In this document: positions 5,250-64,000 of the stretch, one piece after another
Numbering within the stretch: the first letter of the stretch is position 1
Layout of the letters: each line of letters opens with the position of its first letter
Assembly (NCBI GenBank): GCA_012064415.1
Contig: SSNU01000024.1
Coordinates: 62,001 to 126,000 of the forward strand
Direction of reading: 5' to 3'
DNA length: 64,000 nt
DNA from: Gyrodactylus bullatarudis
Taxonomy: Eukaryota > Platyhelminthes > Monogenea > Gyrodactylidea > Gyrodactylidae
Notes under the pieces: model-generated
Seen by the model: the letters and a program-made list of their open reading frames with translations, nothing else
Database searches by the model: none
Told to the model about the DNA's origin: nothing
Position numbers and translations under genes: made by a program

Positions 5250-6070
5250 GATTTTCTACTCCACTTGTCTTGTCTAATTGTCAGTTGAAAACTTTTGTAG
5301 ACTAATCGTTTAAAAATATTTCTTTCTTATTATTACATTTGACCTAGTTTTCACTTTTGTTAACTTGTACACATTTCATTGGTCAGATTTTATGGATAAA
5401 TCAATGGAGGAATTCCATTGTTCGGAATTGAATCTGTTCGATGAACCCAGATGTGTCCCCATGAAAAGTTCTCATGATGAAAATGCTTCATGAGAAATTC
5501 TCGACAATCAAGTGTGATTATTCAACAAGAAATTGCTTTCTACTCTCAATCTTTCTCTCTCTTGAAGTCAACAGAAAGAAATACAAAATAATCACATTCA
5601 AATCGACTACAGTTTAAAGTCATCTCAGAGTTTAACAACAATAAGAACCTATTTCTTCCCACATACACACATTAGCAATGTCCAGATTGTACTAGCTTCA
5701 TTGAAAATTATTAAAATTCAATGAATGAATGAAAACTACTCTTTGATACAAGACTTTTATTTAACAGTTACACATTATTCATAAATAATATCTTTTCATC
5801 GTATCAAAGTTAAGGTTGATGATAACGAATATGACGACCATGATGGTGTTTATTTTAATAATATGAGAATACAATTATTATTATTATTATTAGAATAGTA
5901 GGATCCATGATCAAGGGACATTTATACACATTTATATATATATATCTGTTTGTCAATTATTATTATTATTGTTATCAGCAAACTCACAAGTCTATTATAA
6001 CAGATTGAGAGAACGGGAGGAGGAGGAGGTAAAGGGAGGTTTGGGAATTGGCGTAATAACTGTGTGAGAG
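5250..6070. other. Intergenic DNA / 3' UTR of the MYPT-tail gene
   Basis: AT-rich with ATT-type simple repeats (5876-5895, 5950-5975) and a GGAGGAGG purine run near 6016. No reading frame is supportable. The right part is downstream of the minus-strand stop at 6071 and is probably its 3' untranslated region. Confidence 0.5.
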
Positions 6071-7735: not shown

Positions 7736-8754
7736 TGTGATAGGGTTTTGTCCTTTGATTTGTCAAATTAATCCAGTTTACTCCTTATAATCCATCACTT
7801 GTTATTCCTCTCGTTTTATAAACTCGTAGAAAGTCTCTCTGTGTATATATATATATTGTGGCTATTATTATGTTATCGTGAATATTTGTACATATTTGAT
7901 TCTCTTATGTTTCTCAAAAGACCACCTTAAAAATCTTTATAATTCATATTAGTAATTCATTAAGAATAATACAAAAATATTACTATCATTATGAATTCGA
8001 GGTGAAATTTCATTGGTCAAGATCAAACAAATTTGTGCATTATGAAATAGAATGCGTGGGCGTCCACAAACACATACACATATCTCTCTCTCGAATAGAT
8101 TTGTTACATTGGTTGGTATCTGCAATCGTACTACAATATATCTTTAGAATGGGATCACAATGATACCTACACCTCTCAGAATGTAATTCATGTAAGCTAG
8201 TAATATCTACGCATGTGATGTAAGGAGATCTCTGTTGTATTTGTGTATCCCATACTTTGTACATTTATTTTTATCCAATATAAAATACTTCTAGGTCTCT
8301 CTCTCTCTCTCTCTAGACACAGAAAAAGTGTATATATAGTTGAAGACATTGATTTTGTTTAGCATCAAAATGTGGAGAAATTGGGAAAGAGAGAGAGAGG
8401 GTTTTAAATCATCCACAGATCATGATCTATATAGGAAAAGTTACTTTTGTATGCAAAACTAGTGTACTTGTGTGTATCATTTGCATTGCATTGCGTAGTT
8501 TGACCTTTTCCCTAGATAAGAGCTTACCTTCCAATAATAATTCCACCCATATATTTTGTTCTATTTTTTATTATTCTGGCTACCTACTTGAAAGTAAATA
8601 GACGGATTTTCTTTTTTCATTCAGGTTGATTAATTTTTTGTCATCGTAGAATAAATAAATGTTGAACAGAAATTGCTTCATATAAAGGTTATACAAACAA
8701 GAACTGTAAAGAAATATTGGCTACAAAACGCAGCTTAAACGTACAATCCTGGAA
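7736..8754. other. Intergenic DNA between divergent genes
   Basis: Upstream DNA of the MYPT-tail gene (left) and the carbonic-anhydrase-like gene (right). It contains short TA and CT/GA microsatellites (about 7845-7857, 8296-8315, 8389-8400). Stop-poor frames on the minus strand (8040-8264) show no homology I can recognise, and I see no ankyrin-repeat exon here. Confidence 0.5.
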
Positions 8755-9666
8755 ATGATGCTCAAGATGCCGTTCGTGCAAGGATGCCTCCTTCTAATAA
8801 TTAGGCTAAGAGTCGGCAATTCAGAGTTCCTCTACGATAAACAGGAACGATGGCATGAAAAAGACCCCAATTGTGCCGACTCTATCCAGAGTCCTATCGA
8901 TATAAACTCAAACAATGTACAATATTCGAGTGAGCTGGGCTCCTTACACCTCGAATCGGGTAACGAGACAACTTTGTACCTCCAGCGGACTGGAGATGTC
9001 TATCTTGGCCAATTCCCCGAGGACCACCACCAGAGTTTTCTCCTCTTCAGGGGCCAGAGATTTCGATTCAGTCAATTCCACTTTCACTTTCACAAGTTAC
9101 CTGGCCATGGGGGCAGTCAGCACACCATCAACGGTCTACGCCACGATCTGGAATTGGAATTTGAGCTGGTCAACACAAACGGTAAGGCTGTATGGAGTTC
9201 CCTGTACCTCTGTGTCTTCTTCGCAGAGATGCAGATTGCTGAGGAAAATTTCATAGAAAAAATGCTTCCGTATGCCTTTGAGATGCTGGTTGAGGAACAG
9301 GTGACTGTGGAACGTCACAGAGTGGATATTGTCAGTCTTCTCCAAAAGTACGCTGATCTCAGCATGTACGTTCACTACGTTGGTTCGAGATCTATGGTCA
9401 ATTGTCAGCCAAATCTTCCCGTTGTTGTCTTGATGAAGCCTCTAGTGGTTTCACACTTGGAATTGCAACGCTTCAAGAGACTCCCGTTAAGTAGTGCTGG
9501 TCACAATTATCGTTGGACTCAGAACCTAAATGGAAGGAAGGTTGAGAAGAGCTACCTGGACAGGCTGCCTGAAACTCGCCGAGAGATGAACTCATTCCCT
9601 TGTCCTCATTACTCTCAACATGTCCTTGGTGTCCTTATGACCTTTATTTTCTCTCTCTCTCTCTAG
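8755..9666 (+). CDS. Carbonic-anhydrase-related protein, predicted inactive
   Basis: A 303-aa alpha-carbonic-anhydrase fold encoded without introns. The N-terminus (to ~21) is hydrophobic and acts as a signal peptide; CADSIQSPIDI is the family start. Two of the three zinc histidines are present in QFHFHF (H109, H111), but the third (CA2 H119, in ELHLVH) is Glu135 in ELEFELV. The gatekeeper pair is altered too: CA2 E106 is Gln122 (GSQHT), and the GSLTTPP loop is GSRSMVN. It should therefore not hydrate CO2 and resembles CARP/receptor-type proteins. The C-terminus is hydrophobic (VLGVLMTFIFSLSL), suggesting a GPI anchor or membrane tail. It ends 76 bases from the convergent GCP2 stop. Confidence 0.88.
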   Translation: MMLKMPFVQGCLLLIIRLRVGNSEFLYDKQERWHEKDPNCADSIQSPIDINSNNVQYSSELGSLHLESGNETTLYLQRTGDVYLGQFPEDHHQSFLLFRGQRFRFSQFHFHFHKLPGHGGSQHTINGLRHDLELEFELVNTNGKAVWSSLYLCVFFAEMQIAEENFIEKMLPYAFEMLVEEQVTVERHRVDIVSLLQKYADLSMYVHYVGSRSMVNCQPNLPVVVLMKPLVVSHLELQRFKRLPLSSAGHNYRWTQNLNGRKVEKSYLDRLPETRREMNSFPCPHYSQHVLGVLMTFIFSLSL

Positions 9667-55800: not shown

Positions 55801-58800
55801 TAAAATGATTTATTTTATTAGCTACTCAAAACAATTGGAACAAATAATATGATAATGCTCTTTGCATGGAAAATTTGAACATTTCGAACACTTTCTGTAC
55901 CCTTTACGATCTTCTTTCCATGGACAAATCGCGCATCTTCCACTCTTTTTTGAGAACTTAGTCTGTTTTTCGGGGATTATTTCTTCAGTCTCTTCCTTGT
56001 CTCTCTTCTTAGCTTGGCTACTCAACAATAAATGGCAAAGATCTTTTAGAAATCTTCTTCTTGCAGTTTTTGGTTTTATTTTGACAAAAGTAGGATGTTT
56101 TTCACAATATAAAACATAGGCATTGAATGCGGCTGCATCTAGAATATTCCAAAATATAGCCATAGGCCACCGTCTCGTAGCCTCTTGCAAGATAAGTACC
56201 TGATAACTTGTTCCAAAGTATCAACGCCACCCTTTGTGGAGTTATAATACTGTATTATTTCTGGCTTTGGACCACTATCGTAAAATTTTTCGTGGAGAGA
56301 TGACAGAAGCACAACTGGTTGATTCTTTTTCTGTCCGAACCTTAAGATAGCTGTCTCTTCATTGAATATATATTGCTTTTCACCTTGTTCGATCTTATTA
56401 GAACAAAATTCCTTGGGTAGAAATCTTTTAGTTTTTCTACAAGTTCCTACTAAAGATGTTTCATTGGCGACGAGATACTTGAATAATTCCATTGAGGTGA
56501 AAAAATTGTCAGCGATTGCTGTTCGGCCTTTTTTGATATAAGGATGTAAGAGATCTTTCATTACTCGTAATCCTTGATTCTTTTCTGCAGTAGGTCCTTC
56601 TTTGCCTATATATATCTGGGCGTTTAGCAAGTAGGAATTTTTGGAATCGCAAGCTGCCCATATCTTTATTCCGTATTTGCCTGGTTTAGAAGGAATAAAC
56701 ATTTTGAAAGGACACCGTCCCCGAAAAGTAACAAGCTGCTCATCTACAGTTATTTGATCAGACGGCTCATATGCTGTCTGACAATTTTCGATGAACTGAT
56801 CAAATAAAACTCTTATTGGTCTCAATTTATCTCGATTTTCATCTTGAGGTCTTTCTTCCTTGTTATCAAATCTCAAAAATCTTTTCAATACATTGAATCT
56901 TGAGTAAGACATGAACTCTCCTATATTTATCGGTCCCCATCTTTCTTGCCATAGCTCTTGAAATGGGTGGAAAACCACCCATGATTACATTCTAGGGTTA
57001 AATGTTTACAAATGGAGACTGTTCAAGAATAGAGCAAATAATCTGAGAGCTCTTTAGAGAGACGATTGAAAAGGGAAATGAATGATAAATTTAACCAAGT
57101 GATGACACTATCAAGGAGAAGCCAACTGAGTATGTATACGATATCGATATGTAGTAGGCTATAGGGTTGTTTAATGTAATAGGTCCAATCTCAAACTTTC
57201 CTTTCATAGAGGCAAGGACATGAAAATAGACTTTAGATATAGGGTGTCTTGACTTGTCTATAGTTGAAATCACAAAATATGTTGATAAAAAGTTAAATAA
57301 AAAGTCTGTTATCTGATTTATTTACCATCAAGACTATGGATGAAGAAGACCCAGATTTGTTCTTGTTTGAAAAAGAAATTTGTTTAGAGATTGAGAAAAA
57401 ATAAATAAATACGACTCAAGTCTAAGGAATATAGAAATGAGTCCAATTTCTACTAGGATGACTCACCAATTTTCATCCTCCTCGCCGAGGACCAAGATTT
57501 GTTCATGAGGATGAAAGCCCAACTCTTCCGGGTACTCGGCTTGAAATTCAAAGTTTGTACGAACAATTTTACCGGCCATCTTACGGGTATATCCTTCTGG
57601 TATGGGAGTATTCTTGACATCGATTGAATTGGAAAAGCCATTAGTTGGATTGGGCGAAACCTGACTGGGTGACTTGAAGTCATTGTATGCCATCATTTTG
57701 TCAGCATTCAGATTTATAAGTTTCTTCACGAAAAGAGGAAGATAATTCATCAGGATTATATTACTATACTATGCTATGTTCAGTTGAAATATGAGTAGAT
57801 AATAGTAGGTAAGACAAAATTTTATTTTTCCCGAAAAATGTTTCATGTTGATGTTCTGATATACAAAAATCTCATCATTCCTAGAACCATCAAAATTTAC
57901 TTTGATTGCTAGGAATTTCTTTCAACATGTGGAAAAATACTCAATTTTTACTGGTATTTTTAAAATGTATTCAGAAAGCTTAATTTTGTCTTTTCTCGTA
58001 GTGAAATTCATTGAAAAAATCTTGGCGCGTGTTCGAAAATTGTCATTTTCAATCGAGATTTTGTATATATCAGAACAAACTCGAAAATGTATGGTTTTAT
58101 AGGAAAAAATGCTCAGTTTTCAATTATCTTTAAAATGAGATTAAGGCTAAAGCTGAAAAATTTGGCCTACTCTAGTAGAAAATAATCCTTGAGTAGGAGT
58201 TTTATTTTCAGGGGTAAATGCTTACTTATGAGTAGATCACTGTTTTATTTTTCATTAGAGAAGAAGATCAATAGAAGAAACTGTAGACACACGAATAACA
58301 AGTACAACAGGTACTCTAAAAGTAATCATTCAATATTCCACAAAGTGGTAGGAAGTATCATTCCATCATCATTGGTATACTACAACAACAAGTGTGATAT
58401 CTAAACATAAGTACCAAGAGTACTTGAGAGACTTCTTGACTCTTTTGTCTAATCTTGGAACATTTAATTACTTCTCCCGCATTTTGATTATGGAGCCAAT
58501 CTTGTCTGCAATCTACTACTATAAAGAAACACTAAACGTATTCAATTTCATCTGTTGCTCTTTACCAGAAAATTTACCAAAATAAAATTTATCAACTTTT
58601 TTCAAAAAATAAAAACCCTATTTATTAGGGTAATACAGAATTTTATTTTCTTTCTTACGACATGTGAAAGAACACTCAATTTTATCTATATGCCCTATTT
58701 TTATTCAAAATTTTGCAAAAACTATTCAAAAATCTCAATTTTGTCTTTTCTCGTAGTGAAATTCATTGAAAAAATCTTGGCGCCTGTTCAAAATTTGTCA

Positions 58801-61195: not shown

Positions 61196-63984
61196 CTACT
61201 GGGAGATTACAAACTTTTTTGATTTTTTTGCCTTCTTCTTTTTTGCTGCTTTCTTTTTCCTCTGACTAAATTAAGGATCAAGATTAAACACCAGACTGAT
61301 GAGAGAGGAAAACTCACCGAACAGTAACATTTACTCTTTAATTTATTGGAATGTTAACGTAACTTGAGTCTTACCTTGCCCTCTGCTGTCTATAGAAGAA
61401 AGATTTCACTCGATTTTGGTCAAGATTTCAGTCTACTCACAGGCTCCTGTAACCAAAATTAATTCTCCATGAGACCAAGAGTCATTTTCTTCAGAGTTAA
61501 TTCGATAAGCTACTGTATGATAAATATCTCACTTGAGTACATGTTCGGGAATCCTGAAACAAGACAAAAAACCAATCAATCTTAAATATGACTAAGCTGC
61601 TAAAGCAATAAGCATTTGGATCAGTGAATAGAAGACTCACACTGGCTTTGTCGGTCTTGGCAATATCAAAGGAATCTCAAGTAACATCAGATTCTGATGG
61701 GAGTTAGCCTAGTCATAGTTAAAAAAGAGTACTCACACCACCTTGGTTGGTCTAATTTTGTTTATAAAATGGATTGACTTGAACCCGTTTGTATCCATCT
61801 TGGAGACATTTTATTAAAAATCAACTTACACTGGTTCCCCGCCCCTGAAGATTAGAGAAAACTTGATCAATGAAATTCAATTTTCAATTACTATTACTAT
61901 TGGAAGAAGGCAAACTACTCAATAGTACTTACGCATCATCCCTAATCAGAATGAATGTCTAAATTACATTTTCAAATCTTACTCACTCCAGTTGAATAGC
62001 ACTGTCCAATGGATATAATTATTGGCCAATCAGAATGAAGCGAGTAAATATGATCAATAATTTCATTGAATATTTGTAAAATTTACACTGTCCTGAATTT
62101 CTGATTGGTTCATCTTGGGTTATAATTTATAACCTTTAAATAATAAATATTTAGTTTACTTTGACTGCAATCCAAACTCACGGTAGTGCTGGGGCTGTCT
62201 TTTCTTCATATTCAATTCTTTAAAAATCGAGTATTATCCAGAAATCATGTTACAGTCGTTTTTATCATTTTCGATGTAAACTTGCATTAATTTTTGTCTG
62301 ATTTTATAAAAGATTTAATACATGAGATAATTCTCACTGGTCCATATATATAGAACGTACTCTTCAAGTTGAATTAGCCAACTATGAAACAAAGGGGTAA
62401 TTTGTAAAGTTAGTATTCATCAGGCAGGCTTAGATTGATCAAAACAGAGTGGGCTCAACTGACTTACTCGACAAGATTGGTCTCTTTACTGCACGGAGGA
62501 AAGATTTTAGTTGAAAAGAAAGTAGTTTTTTATTTTATCACATGAAACCTACGCTGTCAATGCATCTAGTCTATTTTGATTAGGAAACAAAGTTGATATC
62601 ATTACTCTTTGAATTTATTCCTGTCAACAAGGTTATATCATACTTCATTCGAATGAGTTCTTTCTTACATCATTTGAATCTCGAAACTGAACAAGACAAT
62701 AAAGTACACATGTGGAGTATTTTACGTACTTTTTCTGCTGATCTCTTTCGGCCAGTAATAAGAAAGGGTCCAAACTTACTGCATCACTTTAAGTATGCCG
62801 CTAACATTTTGAGTCAAGCTGAATCAAAGGGATGGCCTCACTTCAGGGTTTCAATTCTAATTTTCAAAAGGATAACATCCATAGGTCGTGTTTCTTACCT
62901 GGCATCACGTTCCTTCCTGTCCGGGGAAGAGAAGGAAATGAAGATAGGCTATTTTGAAATCGGAAACTTGCACGTTGGCTGCCTTTCTCCTAATTGAAGA
63001 AAAGAGAACTGATCAGAATCTTTCTCACTTCAACACCCCGCCAACATGAAGAAATAATCCAGGCCTGCATGAGATCTCTTTTCGATTCTGATTGTTCATT
63101 TTAGGCCTTTCTTAAATTCTTATTGGCTTAGTGAATACTCAATGATGATTGGTTGTTATTTTGGAGTAACAATTTCTGATGTCTAAGTTACTCTGCAAGC
63201 GATTGACTGGAAGAATGAGAAAGTTTTATGAAAATATGATTCTAACGATTTCAGTGTTGGGTAAACTAACGCTCTATCAACCTTGCTCCTACAAAATAGA
63301 ATAAGGGAAGAAGAAAAAGAAGGGTCCAACTCACTTGGACTTGAATTCCCGGCTAATTCAGGCACTCTGCTAAACATCATCTTTCACTTGCCTAGTTACG
63401 TATCTTTGTATTTGTAAGGGGCAGGTGCAAACTATAGACTACTCACTTATTGAGCACTTTACTATATATTTTATGATAGGTTATCATATCAATTCATCCT
63501 GTTTGATGTCTCTTACAGGTGTCTCTCTCTCAGACTTTATGATGAATTTGAATTACTCAAATGCTCTTTTACTCTTCCAGGATTTTCTTTTGTCTGGATG
63601 GATTAAAAATTTATAGGGTAAGTTAACGAACGCCATCTTTTCCTTCTTAATACTGACCCAGCCAAAAACAGGGGATTACAGAAATGGAAAAATTGTTTAA
63701 TTACGCATCGGCTACTTTGCTATATTCAGAAATGCCTCGTCAGGGATCATGTTTCAAAAGACATACTTGATATCCTCTTGGAGGTTTTCACTAGGCGAGT
63801 TATGGAAAAGATGTACAACTTACATTTCCTCTTCTACTTTTCTGCATTTGAAAGTGAATTTGATTGGCTGTCTATTTTGAGTTCGGACTTACTCCATTTC
63901 CTCATATAATCTAGAGAGGAAATCGATTAGTCTACTCTGCAAAAGTAGTCAAGGTTTACTAACAATTCGAGTTCCCTTTCAACC
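61196..63984 (-). CDS. Micro-exon gene: coiled-coil protein, 37 exons seen, 5' end off window
   Basis: Exons (minus, 5' to 3'): 63964-63984, 63893-63910, 63824-63841, 63767-63790, 63705-63719, 63632-63652, 63573-63593, 63517-63534, 63447-63461, 63335-63352, 63271-63288, 63192-63206, 63029-63064, 62972-62989, 62899-62916, 62842-62856, 62780-62800, 62730-62744, 62669-62686, 62606-62620, 62553-62570, 62468-62488, 62361-62381, 62322-62336, 62286-62297, 62182-62217, 62087-62092, 61987-62001, 61933-61941, 61830-61844, 61737-61751, 61641-61655, 61533-61553, 61441-61446, 61375-61389, 61318-61335, 61196-61265. All but the last are 6-36 nt, every one is divisible by three, every junction is phase 2, and introns are 24-127 nt. 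The joined frame is open for 234 residues: acidic/basic coiled coil (IENLQEDINKVAD, ERDARIETLNGILKVM), a Pro-rich part (VPTKVVPTKP) and a Lys-rich tail ending KKFVISQ. Family not recognised. Least certain: 62087-62092 (12-nt alternative 62089-62100), 63029-63064 and the donor of 63632-63652. Confidence 0.85.
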
Positions 63985-64000
63985 CTAAGGAACGGAGGTG

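What the first reader, a model, noticed from the sequence alone, without database searches (positions are those of the whole stretch)
61196..63984. A micro-exon gene with at least 36 consecutive 6-36 nt, all phase-2, exons
On the minus strand, strong donors (GTGAGT, GTAAGT and relatives) recur every 50-120 bases, each preceded 6-36 bases earlier by an AG acceptor. Each interval is a multiple of three (most are 15, 18 or 21 nt) and all splice in phase 2, so any internal exon could be skipped without breaking the frame. Concatenation gives one 234-residue open frame that reads as a coherent coiled coil and joins in phase to a normal 70-nt last exon with a Lys-rich C-terminus and stop. Micro-exon genes of this kind are known from schistosomes and relatives, where they mostly encode secreted variable proteins. 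A long intracellular-looking coiled coil built almost only from micro-exons would be a different use and could give a large isoform repertoire. Open reading, phase uniformity and splice signals are directly seen; variability is inference.
Basis: partly seen in the sequence, partly recalled or inferred. Interest (0 to 1): 0.96.

Follow-up and report, generated by a model that had tools for sequence, protein, structure and literature searches.

The report
Flatworm array of 60-80 micro-exons
In a genome that is probably a parasitic flatworm's, a 9-kilobase stretch carries some 60 to 80 predicted exons of mostly 15-21 bases that keep one reading frame, so the animal could likely skip any of them and so would make many versions of a predicted coiled-coil protein.

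Summary
GTGAGT/GTAAGT donors on the minus strand are dense from 61.3 to 70.3 kb, 6.3 kb past the window edge (44 in 12 kb, 35 in the other 78 kb). Picked without a frame rule, 38 of 44 acceptor-donor intervals are multiples of three; 2 of these 38 have a stop in phase 2, against 19 and 15 in the other frames. Chain models give 59-81 micro-exons, 21-27 in the window; 36 in the window was not reached, and 34 only where controls yield many too. Mitochondrial code and gamma-tubulin point to a neodermatan flatworm, perhaps a gyrodactylid. On predicted structure the array meets a published micro-exon-gene definition but has several times the exons of Schistosoma mansoni MEGs. No homologue or Pfam family was found, and no clear signal-peptide exon in 6 kb upstream. 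It may be one gene or two abutting genes. SmVAL6 (38 exons, same-phase small exons, no signal peptide, 35 isoforms) is a precedent. Splicing and isoforms are untested. New variant of a known kind.

The parts
61196..61265 (-). Last exon, 70 nt, phase 2 at its 5' end; Lys-rich C-terminus ending ...KKFVISQ and stop
61375..61389 (-). micro-exon 15 nt (QQRA)
   Evidence: in all three model settings
61441..61446 (-). micro-exon 6 nt
   Evidence: all three settings
61533..61553 (-). micro-exon 21 nt (IPEHVL)
   Evidence: all three settings
61641..61655 (-). micro-exon 15 nt (PTKP); 10 of 15 bases match the one at 61737-61751, not more than chance
   Evidence: all three settings
61737..61751 (-). micro-exon 15 nt (PTKV); strong donor, weak acceptor
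   Evidence: all three settings
61830..61844 (-). micro-exon 15 nt
   Evidence: all three settings
61933..61941 (-). micro-exon 9 nt
   Evidence: all three settings
61987..62001 (-). micro-exon 15 nt
   Evidence: all three settings
62087..62092 (-). micro-exon 6 nt
   Evidence: all three settings
62182..62217 (-). micro-exon 36 nt
   Evidence: all three settings
62286..62297 (-). micro-exon 12 nt, GC donor (GCAAGT)
   Evidence: all three settings (models that allow GC donors)
62361..62381 (-). micro-exon 21 nt (WLIQLE)
   Evidence: all three settings
62468..62488 (-). micro-exon 21 nt
   Evidence: all three settings
62553..62570 (-). micro-exon 18 nt, lower confidence
   Evidence: not in all settings
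62669..62686 (-). micro-exon 18 nt
   Evidence: all three settings
62780..62818 (-). small exon 39 nt
   Evidence: all three settings
62899..62916 (-). micro-exon 18 nt
   Evidence: all three settings
62972..62989 (-). micro-exon 18 nt, GC donor (GCAAGT)
   Evidence: all three settings (models that allow GC donors)
63192..63206 (-). micro-exon 15 nt
   Evidence: all three settings
63271..63288 (-). micro-exon 18 nt, GTTAGT donor
   Evidence: all three settings
63447..63461 (-). micro-exon 15 nt
   Evidence: all three settings
63517..63534 (-). micro-exon 18 nt
   Evidence: all three settings
63573..63593 (-). micro-exon 21 nt, lower confidence
   Evidence: not in all settings
63705..63719 (-). 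micro-exon 15 nt, lower confidence
   Evidence: not in all settings
63824..63841 (-). micro-exon 18 nt
   Evidence: all three settings
63893..63910 (-). micro-exon 18 nt
   Evidence: all three settings
63964..63984 (-). micro-exon 21 nt (VERELE); GTTAGT donor
   Evidence: all three settings
61196..64000 (-). window part of the array; it continues beyond the window (extended coordinates 64065 to about 70350, = G000:C252:126065 to about 132350)

Best explanation
This is very likely a protein-coding micro-exon array, predicted to hold some 60-80 internal exons (mostly 15-21 nt, in phase 2), in what is probably a monogenean flatworm, and it would work like the micro-exon genes of other parasitic flatworms. 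How it works: each short intron (median about 86 nt in the model) is likely recognised by its own donor and acceptor, and the exons are joined in phase 2. Because the internal exons are multiples of three in one phase, any of them could be left out without a frameshift, so the locus would likely give isoforms that differ by 2-14 residues. The array probably grew in part by duplication of exon-intron units, as four related 24-nt exons near the 5' end suggest. The product is predicted to be a long protein with a helical, coiled-coil-like part and a Lys-rich tail, and it is perhaps intracellular. The array may be a single gene, or two same-strand genes that abut near 65.0-65.6 kb, each with 32-41 model micro-exons. 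Shown from sequence: donor density, multiples of three, phase-2 openness, codon-position composition, the related 24-nt exons. Inferred: transcription, splicing, skipping, start codon, location of the protein.
For: Donor enrichment confined to about 61-70.3 kb, minus strand. Frame-blind intervals: 38 of 44 multiples of three; stops in 2 of 38 in phase 2 versus 19 and 15; stricter acceptor scoring gives 15 of 18, with stops in 1 versus 5 and 7 of 15. Phase-free parse with generic splice profiles: 21 of 23 exons phase 2-2 at penalty 4; at penalty 5 score 32.6 versus at most 9.9 in 17 control tile-strands. Phase-2 chain: window part 192.4 versus at most 14.9 in 54 control tiles (profiles were trained on this gene). 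In the 38 frame-blind exons, mean codon score 0.129 bits in phase 2 versus -0.005 and 0.021; codon-position composition of the model follows frames elsewhere in the window at positions 1 and 2 (G 0.33/0.28 and 0.11/0.13). Four 24-nt exons: best pairs match at 17, 16 and 15 of 24 bases; 0 of 500 random draws reach that. Flatworm mitochondrial code, neodermatan gamma-tubulin relatives. A second small micro-exon gene, picked by eye, in phase 1, lies elsewhere in the genome.
Against: No transcript or relative was seen. The exon list changes with settings (63, 59, 65-81). Many acceptors are weak: at the strict threshold only 18 of 63 strong donors had one, and at the loosest 13 of 57 had none. The codon-score difference is small and position 3 differs from other genes. 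No homologue at E <= 10 in two protein searches, so no conservation test. The six other exon-size classes tested show no related copies beyond chance. The start and any signal peptide are not settled.
Confidence: 0.78

Rival explanations
1. Two abutting micro-exon genes on one strand rather than one: gene A (about 70.35-65.56 kb) ending in a short exon with a stop (65579-65558, ...VIRQEGM), and gene B (about 65.05-61.196 kb) starting near a split ATG (MDDEFEF...).
For: The stretch 65742-64983 has only two model exons, with poor donors (scores 1.2 and -4.0); outside it the longest introns of the three models are 280-289 nt. An in-frame stop follows a plausible acceptor at 65579-65558, and a strong donor stands at 65051. 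The gap is like the 0.6 kb from the array's stop to the start of the GRB2-like gene.
Against: Reading frame and phase continue across the gap in the one-gene model. In another model an intron of 455 nt lies at 69.9-69.5 kb, so a long gap alone does not mark a gene end. No promoter, trans-splice or poly(A) evidence was tested.
Confidence: 0.45
2. A secreted micro-exon-gene protein of the schistosome kind whose signal-peptide exon lies far upstream or was missed.
For: MEG proteins almost without exception are secreted or membrane anchored (PMC5825161, passages read). The 5' end here is unproven. The start of a possible second gene near 65 kb was not searched for a signal peptide.
Against: Of candidate ATG exons between 69.9 and 76 kb (at least 12 residues, donor score 1.5 or more), three have an 11-residue hydrophobic stretch above 1.6. 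Two end in phase 1, which fits neither the 8-nt nor the first 24-nt exon. The third, in phase 2, would fit, but is a 76-residue frame with a polar start and its hydrophobic stretch inside. The 121-residue core of the downstream part has no Cys.
Confidence: 0.25
3. An ordinary conserved animal gene that has become intron-saturated in this compact genome.
For: Short introns, coherent composition of the C-terminal part.
Against: No Pfam family over its cut-off, PDB best E-value 5, no protein match. In the phase-free parse the exons found in other tiles of this contig have mixed phases and sizes.
Confidence: 0.08
4. Non-coding run of splice-like sites (decoy or pseudo-exons, decayed gene).
For: No transcript seen; no homologue.
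Against: Multiples of three and phase-2 openness would not be kept in non-coding DNA.
Confidence: 0.03

Closest known systems
Micro-exon genes (MEGs) of schistosomes and tapeworms (PMC5825161, PMC10526429, PMC7653826; passages read)
   Same: Runs of symmetric exons of 6-36 nt, 15 nt the commonest size in S. mansoni and here; basic Lys-rich C-terminal part; flatworm.
   Different: S. mansoni MEGs have 10-20 very short exons, proteins up to 189 residues, introns of 100 to almost 5000 bp and an N-terminal signal peptide; here 59-81 model exons (or two sets of 32-41), introns of 38-369 nt in the middle model, no clear signal-peptide exon found.
SmVAL6, group 2 venom-allergen-like gene of Schistosoma mansoni (PMC2270263, PMC4350168; passages read)
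   Same: 38 exons, 17 under 20 bp, many small exons in the same phase, no signal peptide, one GC donor; 35 isoforms among 67 cDNA clones.
   Different: SmVAL6 has an SCP/TAPS (CAP) domain before the small exons and spans ~60 kb; none of 51 listed CAP matches in this genome lies within 80 kb of the array.
Aphid bicycle and megacycle genes (PMC9168663; abstract and passages read)
   Same: Many micro-exons, almost all phase 2; a megacycle gene has 118 exons.
   Different: Insect genes expressed in salivary glands; the megacycle gene spans ~100 kb and has 15 long repeat units. Any relation to this gene was not tested by sequence.

Membership tests
Flatworm micro-exon gene (definition used in PMC7653826) | micro-exons = exons under 70 nt divisible by three; at least 7 exons, at least half micro-exons, at least 4 consecutive | tested here: met
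   On predicted structure only: 71 consecutive exons of 6-42 nt in the middle model (which imposes multiples of three and phase 2); frame-blind check 38 of 44 multiples of three.
Flatworm micro-exon gene (MEG) | short exons make up most of the coding region | tested here: met
   Predicted: 1278 nt in 71 model micro-exons plus a 70-nt last exon; first exon unknown.
Flatworm micro-exon gene (MEG) | N-terminal signal peptide, secreted or membrane-anchored product | tested here: inconclusive
   No clear candidate from 69.9 to 76 kb; one phase-compatible frame has an internal hydrophobic stretch. First exon not proven; start near 65 kb not searched.
Flatworm micro-exon gene (MEG) | isoforms by exon skipping | not testable with these tools
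   No RNA data.
Schistosome MEG families | sequence similarity to known MEG proteins | tested here: inconclusive
   No match at E <= 10 in two searches that scored 251 and 7995 candidates; no MEG protein was compared directly, and the queries are hand-merged predictions.
SmVAL6-like gene | CAP/SCP domain encoded upstream of the small exons | tested here: not met
   51 CAP matches listed in the genome; nearest on this contig at 215 and 224 kb, array at 123-132 kb.
SmVAL6-like gene | small exons in one phase, no frameshift on skipping | tested here: met
   On predicted exons:
Aphid bicycle/megacycle gene | internal exons almost all phase 2 | tested here: met
   On predicted exons:
Aphid bicycle/megacycle gene | present in aphids, phylloxerids, coccids | tested here: not met
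   Flatworm mitochondrial code and neodermatan gamma-tubulin relatives.

The most novel reading that the evidence does not exclude
A single flatworm gene with 60-80 consecutive same-phase micro-exons encodes an intracellular coiled-coil protein whose length and binding faces are tuned residue block by residue block through exon skipping: a splice-programmed molecular rod rather than a secreted variable antigen.
Probability: 0.22. Interest if true: 0.85.

Novelty: new variant of a known kind. Interest (0 to 1): 0.66.

Why it matters
Micro-exon genes are known mainly from blood flukes and tapeworms; my searches of the held library with the spelling 'micro-exon' showed no report of one in a monogenean ('microexon' was not searched together with monogenean terms). 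If confirmed, this would be one of the longest runs of micro-exons: of those in the passages that I read only the aphid megacycle gene (118 exons) is longer. It is packed into 9 kb with short introns. That makes it a compact test bed for how a spliceosome joins exons of 6-21 nt without error, whether uniform phase is kept by selection for skipping, and whether micro-exon genes arose before monogeneans, tapeworms and flukes split.

Tried and rejected
Rejected: chance splice-like sites (controls); a tandem-repeat artefact (two short arrays in the window, both far away); a known RNA family or tRNA in the window (none found); a VAL6-type composite gene. Led nowhere: Pfam, PDB and protein searches with the predicted protein. 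A genome-wide pattern for two successive micro-exons gave 137 matches against 220 for the control pattern read backwards, so it is dominated by chance; among the places shown (the list is cut short) only this array has three within 10 kb, which says nothing firm. Following one of its matches gave the second micro-exon gene. The two 50-nt matches elsewhere in the genome look like a dispersed AT-rich repeat in an intron, not a paralogue.

Circularity to bear in mind: the splice profiles were trained on this gene; some searches were not. Thresholds were set after I had seen the region; the three settings agree. In one search I added one 24-nt exon (69325-69302) by hand before the count; it is not in the three chain models, and the intron after it would be only 37 nt.

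Full report
Where it is. The window is G000:C252:62001-126000 of a 77.3-Mb genome in 471 contigs. I fetched the next 26 kb and use extended coordinates (window, then on past 64000). A 14,926-nt contig holds the mitochondrial genes; its cox1 and other frames give the conserved motifs best if AAA is Asn, AGR Ser, ATA Ile and TGA Trp, the flatworm code (the canonical motifs are recalled). The window's gamma-tubulin frame has as its best named relatives Trichobilharzia, Schistocephalus, Hymenolepis, Dicrocoelium, Clonorchis and Mesocestoides (above them stand a row with a camel name at 58% identity and one without a name; only the 7993 candidates with most shared words were scored). Gyrodactylus assemblies are 67-91 Mb with GC 31-39% (PMC12677651, passages read), which fits this genome's size and the window's GC; 'gyrodactylid' remains an inference.

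Is it real? GTGAGT/GTAAGT on the minus strand: 44 in 60001-72000, 35 in the other 78 kb; plus strand in the same 12 kb: 5. I then chose, for each strong donor, the most pyrimidine-rich YAG 6-45 nt upstream with no frame rule: of 57 donors 44 had one, and 38 of these 44 intervals are multiples of three. Of the 38, stops fall in 19 (offset 0), 2 (offset 1, phase 2) and 15 (offset 2). Stricter settings give 31 of 34 and 23 of 24. Controls in the same call at the loosest setting: 3 of 11 (same region, plus strand), 13 of 31, 6 of 24, 6 of 10 and 4 of 6, together 32 of 82. An earlier, stricter acceptor score kept only 18 of 63 donors, 15 of 18 being multiples of three. Split at 65.3 kb, both halves hold: 24 of 27 and 14 of 17. 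One of the exceptions, an 8-nt interval at 70299-70292, would take phase 0 to phase 2 and so may be the first internal exon after an ATG-ending exon near 70350 (inference).

A parser with generic splice profiles and free phases chose phase 2-2 for 21 of 23, 18 of 20 and 16 of 18 exons at three penalties; 17 control tile-strands reached at most 9.9 against 32.6 at the same penalty, with mixed phases. In the 38 frame-blind exons the mean codon score is 0.129 bits in phase 2 against -0.005 and 0.021, a small difference. Codon-position composition of the model resembles that of twelve frames elsewhere in the window (3079 codons) at positions 1 and 2; position 3 is more A-rich and less T-rich.

How many exons? 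Phase-2 chain models give 63, 59 and, with GC donors allowed, 65 to 81; 65 are common to the three settings. In the window: 22, 21, 23-27, 24-27. The middle model has 71 micro-exons with a median of 15 nt (23 of 15 nt, 12 of 18, 9 of 21) and introns with a median of 86.5 nt, range 38-369. A still lower penalty gives 34 in the window, but control tiles then have a median of 12 and a maximum of 18. Two window exons use GCAAGT donors; SmVAL6 too has a GC donor.

One gene or two? Between 65742 and 64983 the two model exons have poor donors, an in-frame stop follows an acceptor at 65579-65558, and a strong donor stands at 65051. Against a break, another model has a 455-nt intron elsewhere. I cannot decide between one gene and two abutting genes, with 32-41 model micro-exons upstream and 32-36 downstream.

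What it encodes. No Pfam family over its cut-off, PDB best E-value 5, no protein at E <= 10. A hand-merged 121-residue predicted stretch before the Pro/acidic part has 17% Glu, 12% Lys, 13% Leu, no Pro or Cys; its 3.5-residue moment is reached by 14 of 500 shuffles. The upstream part shows no such periodicity. Four 24-nt exons at 70216, 69953, 69474 and 69325 (the last added by hand) are related: best pairs 17, 16, 15, 14 and 14 of 24; 0 of 500 draws reach the first or the third. The other six size classes tested show nothing beyond chance. So exon duplication is shown for one set only. A search for a signal-peptide exon from 69.9 to 76 kb gave three hydrophobic candidates: two in an unfitting phase, one in a fitting phase with a polar start.

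Company. 0.6 kb downstream on the same strand is a GRB2-like gene (SH2 domain E 2e-19, SH3 below its cut-off; start read, name recalled). Upstream and divergent, about 17 kb away, is a C2HC zinc-finger frame. A second, small micro-exon gene lies at C28 about 43.9-44.5 kb on the minus strand: of six small exons picked by eye five, and an 86-nt last exon, were placed by the script, in phase 1, open to a stop. Uniform phase thus seems a property of each gene, while the phase differs between genes; this rests on two genes.

Compared with what is known. MEGs: about 80% of coding sequence in symmetric exons of 6-36 bp, nearly always secreted or membrane-anchored (PMC5825161, passages); S. mansoni MEGs have 10-20 very short exons and up to 189 residues (PMC10526429, passages); an operational definition is in PMC7653826 (passages) and is met here on predicted structure. 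SmVAL6 shows that many same-phase small exons can sit in a protein without a signal peptide and do give isoforms, 35 among 67 clones (PMC2270263, passages; see also PMC4350168, passages). Aphid bicycle genes have almost only phase-2 internal exons and a megacycle gene has 118 exons (PMC9168663, abstract and passages), so a similar architecture exists in distant animals. I found no paper in the held library on micro-exon genes in monogeneans (the one paper with both terms speaks of a myxozoan MEG, PMC7923790, passages). PMC4398949 (passages) names micro-exon gene organisation as a proposed neodermatan gain, citing works that I did not read (one was asked for by a recalled DOI and is not held).

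Verdict. Very likely a genuine, unusually long, same-phase micro-exon array; a new variant of a known kind.

Noticed in passing
G000:C28:43901-44546 (L040:3901-4546, minus strand): A second, smaller micro-exon gene in phase 1 with an 86-nt last exon, picked by eye; one 6-nt exon is unsure.
   Followed up: partly
window 56142-56984 (-): Transposase frame with a DDE_Tnp_1_7 match (E 1e-54).
   Followed up: no
window about 63111-63162 (-); L002, L003: A ~50-nt AT-rich stretch inside an intron of the array recurs at 86% identity on two other contigs; probably a dispersed repeat.
   Followed up: partly
G000 contigs C118, C194, C442, C470: Many clustered CAP (venom-allergen-like) matches among 51 listed for the genome, suggesting local expansion of that family.
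   Followed up: no
L005 about 8735-8805 and 5870-5945 (-): Two similar tRNA-like stretches upstream of the array, seen by eye; no tRNA search was run there.
   Followed up: no
G000:C13:1-14926 (L008, L009): Mitochondrial contig readable with the flatworm code.
   Followed up: partly
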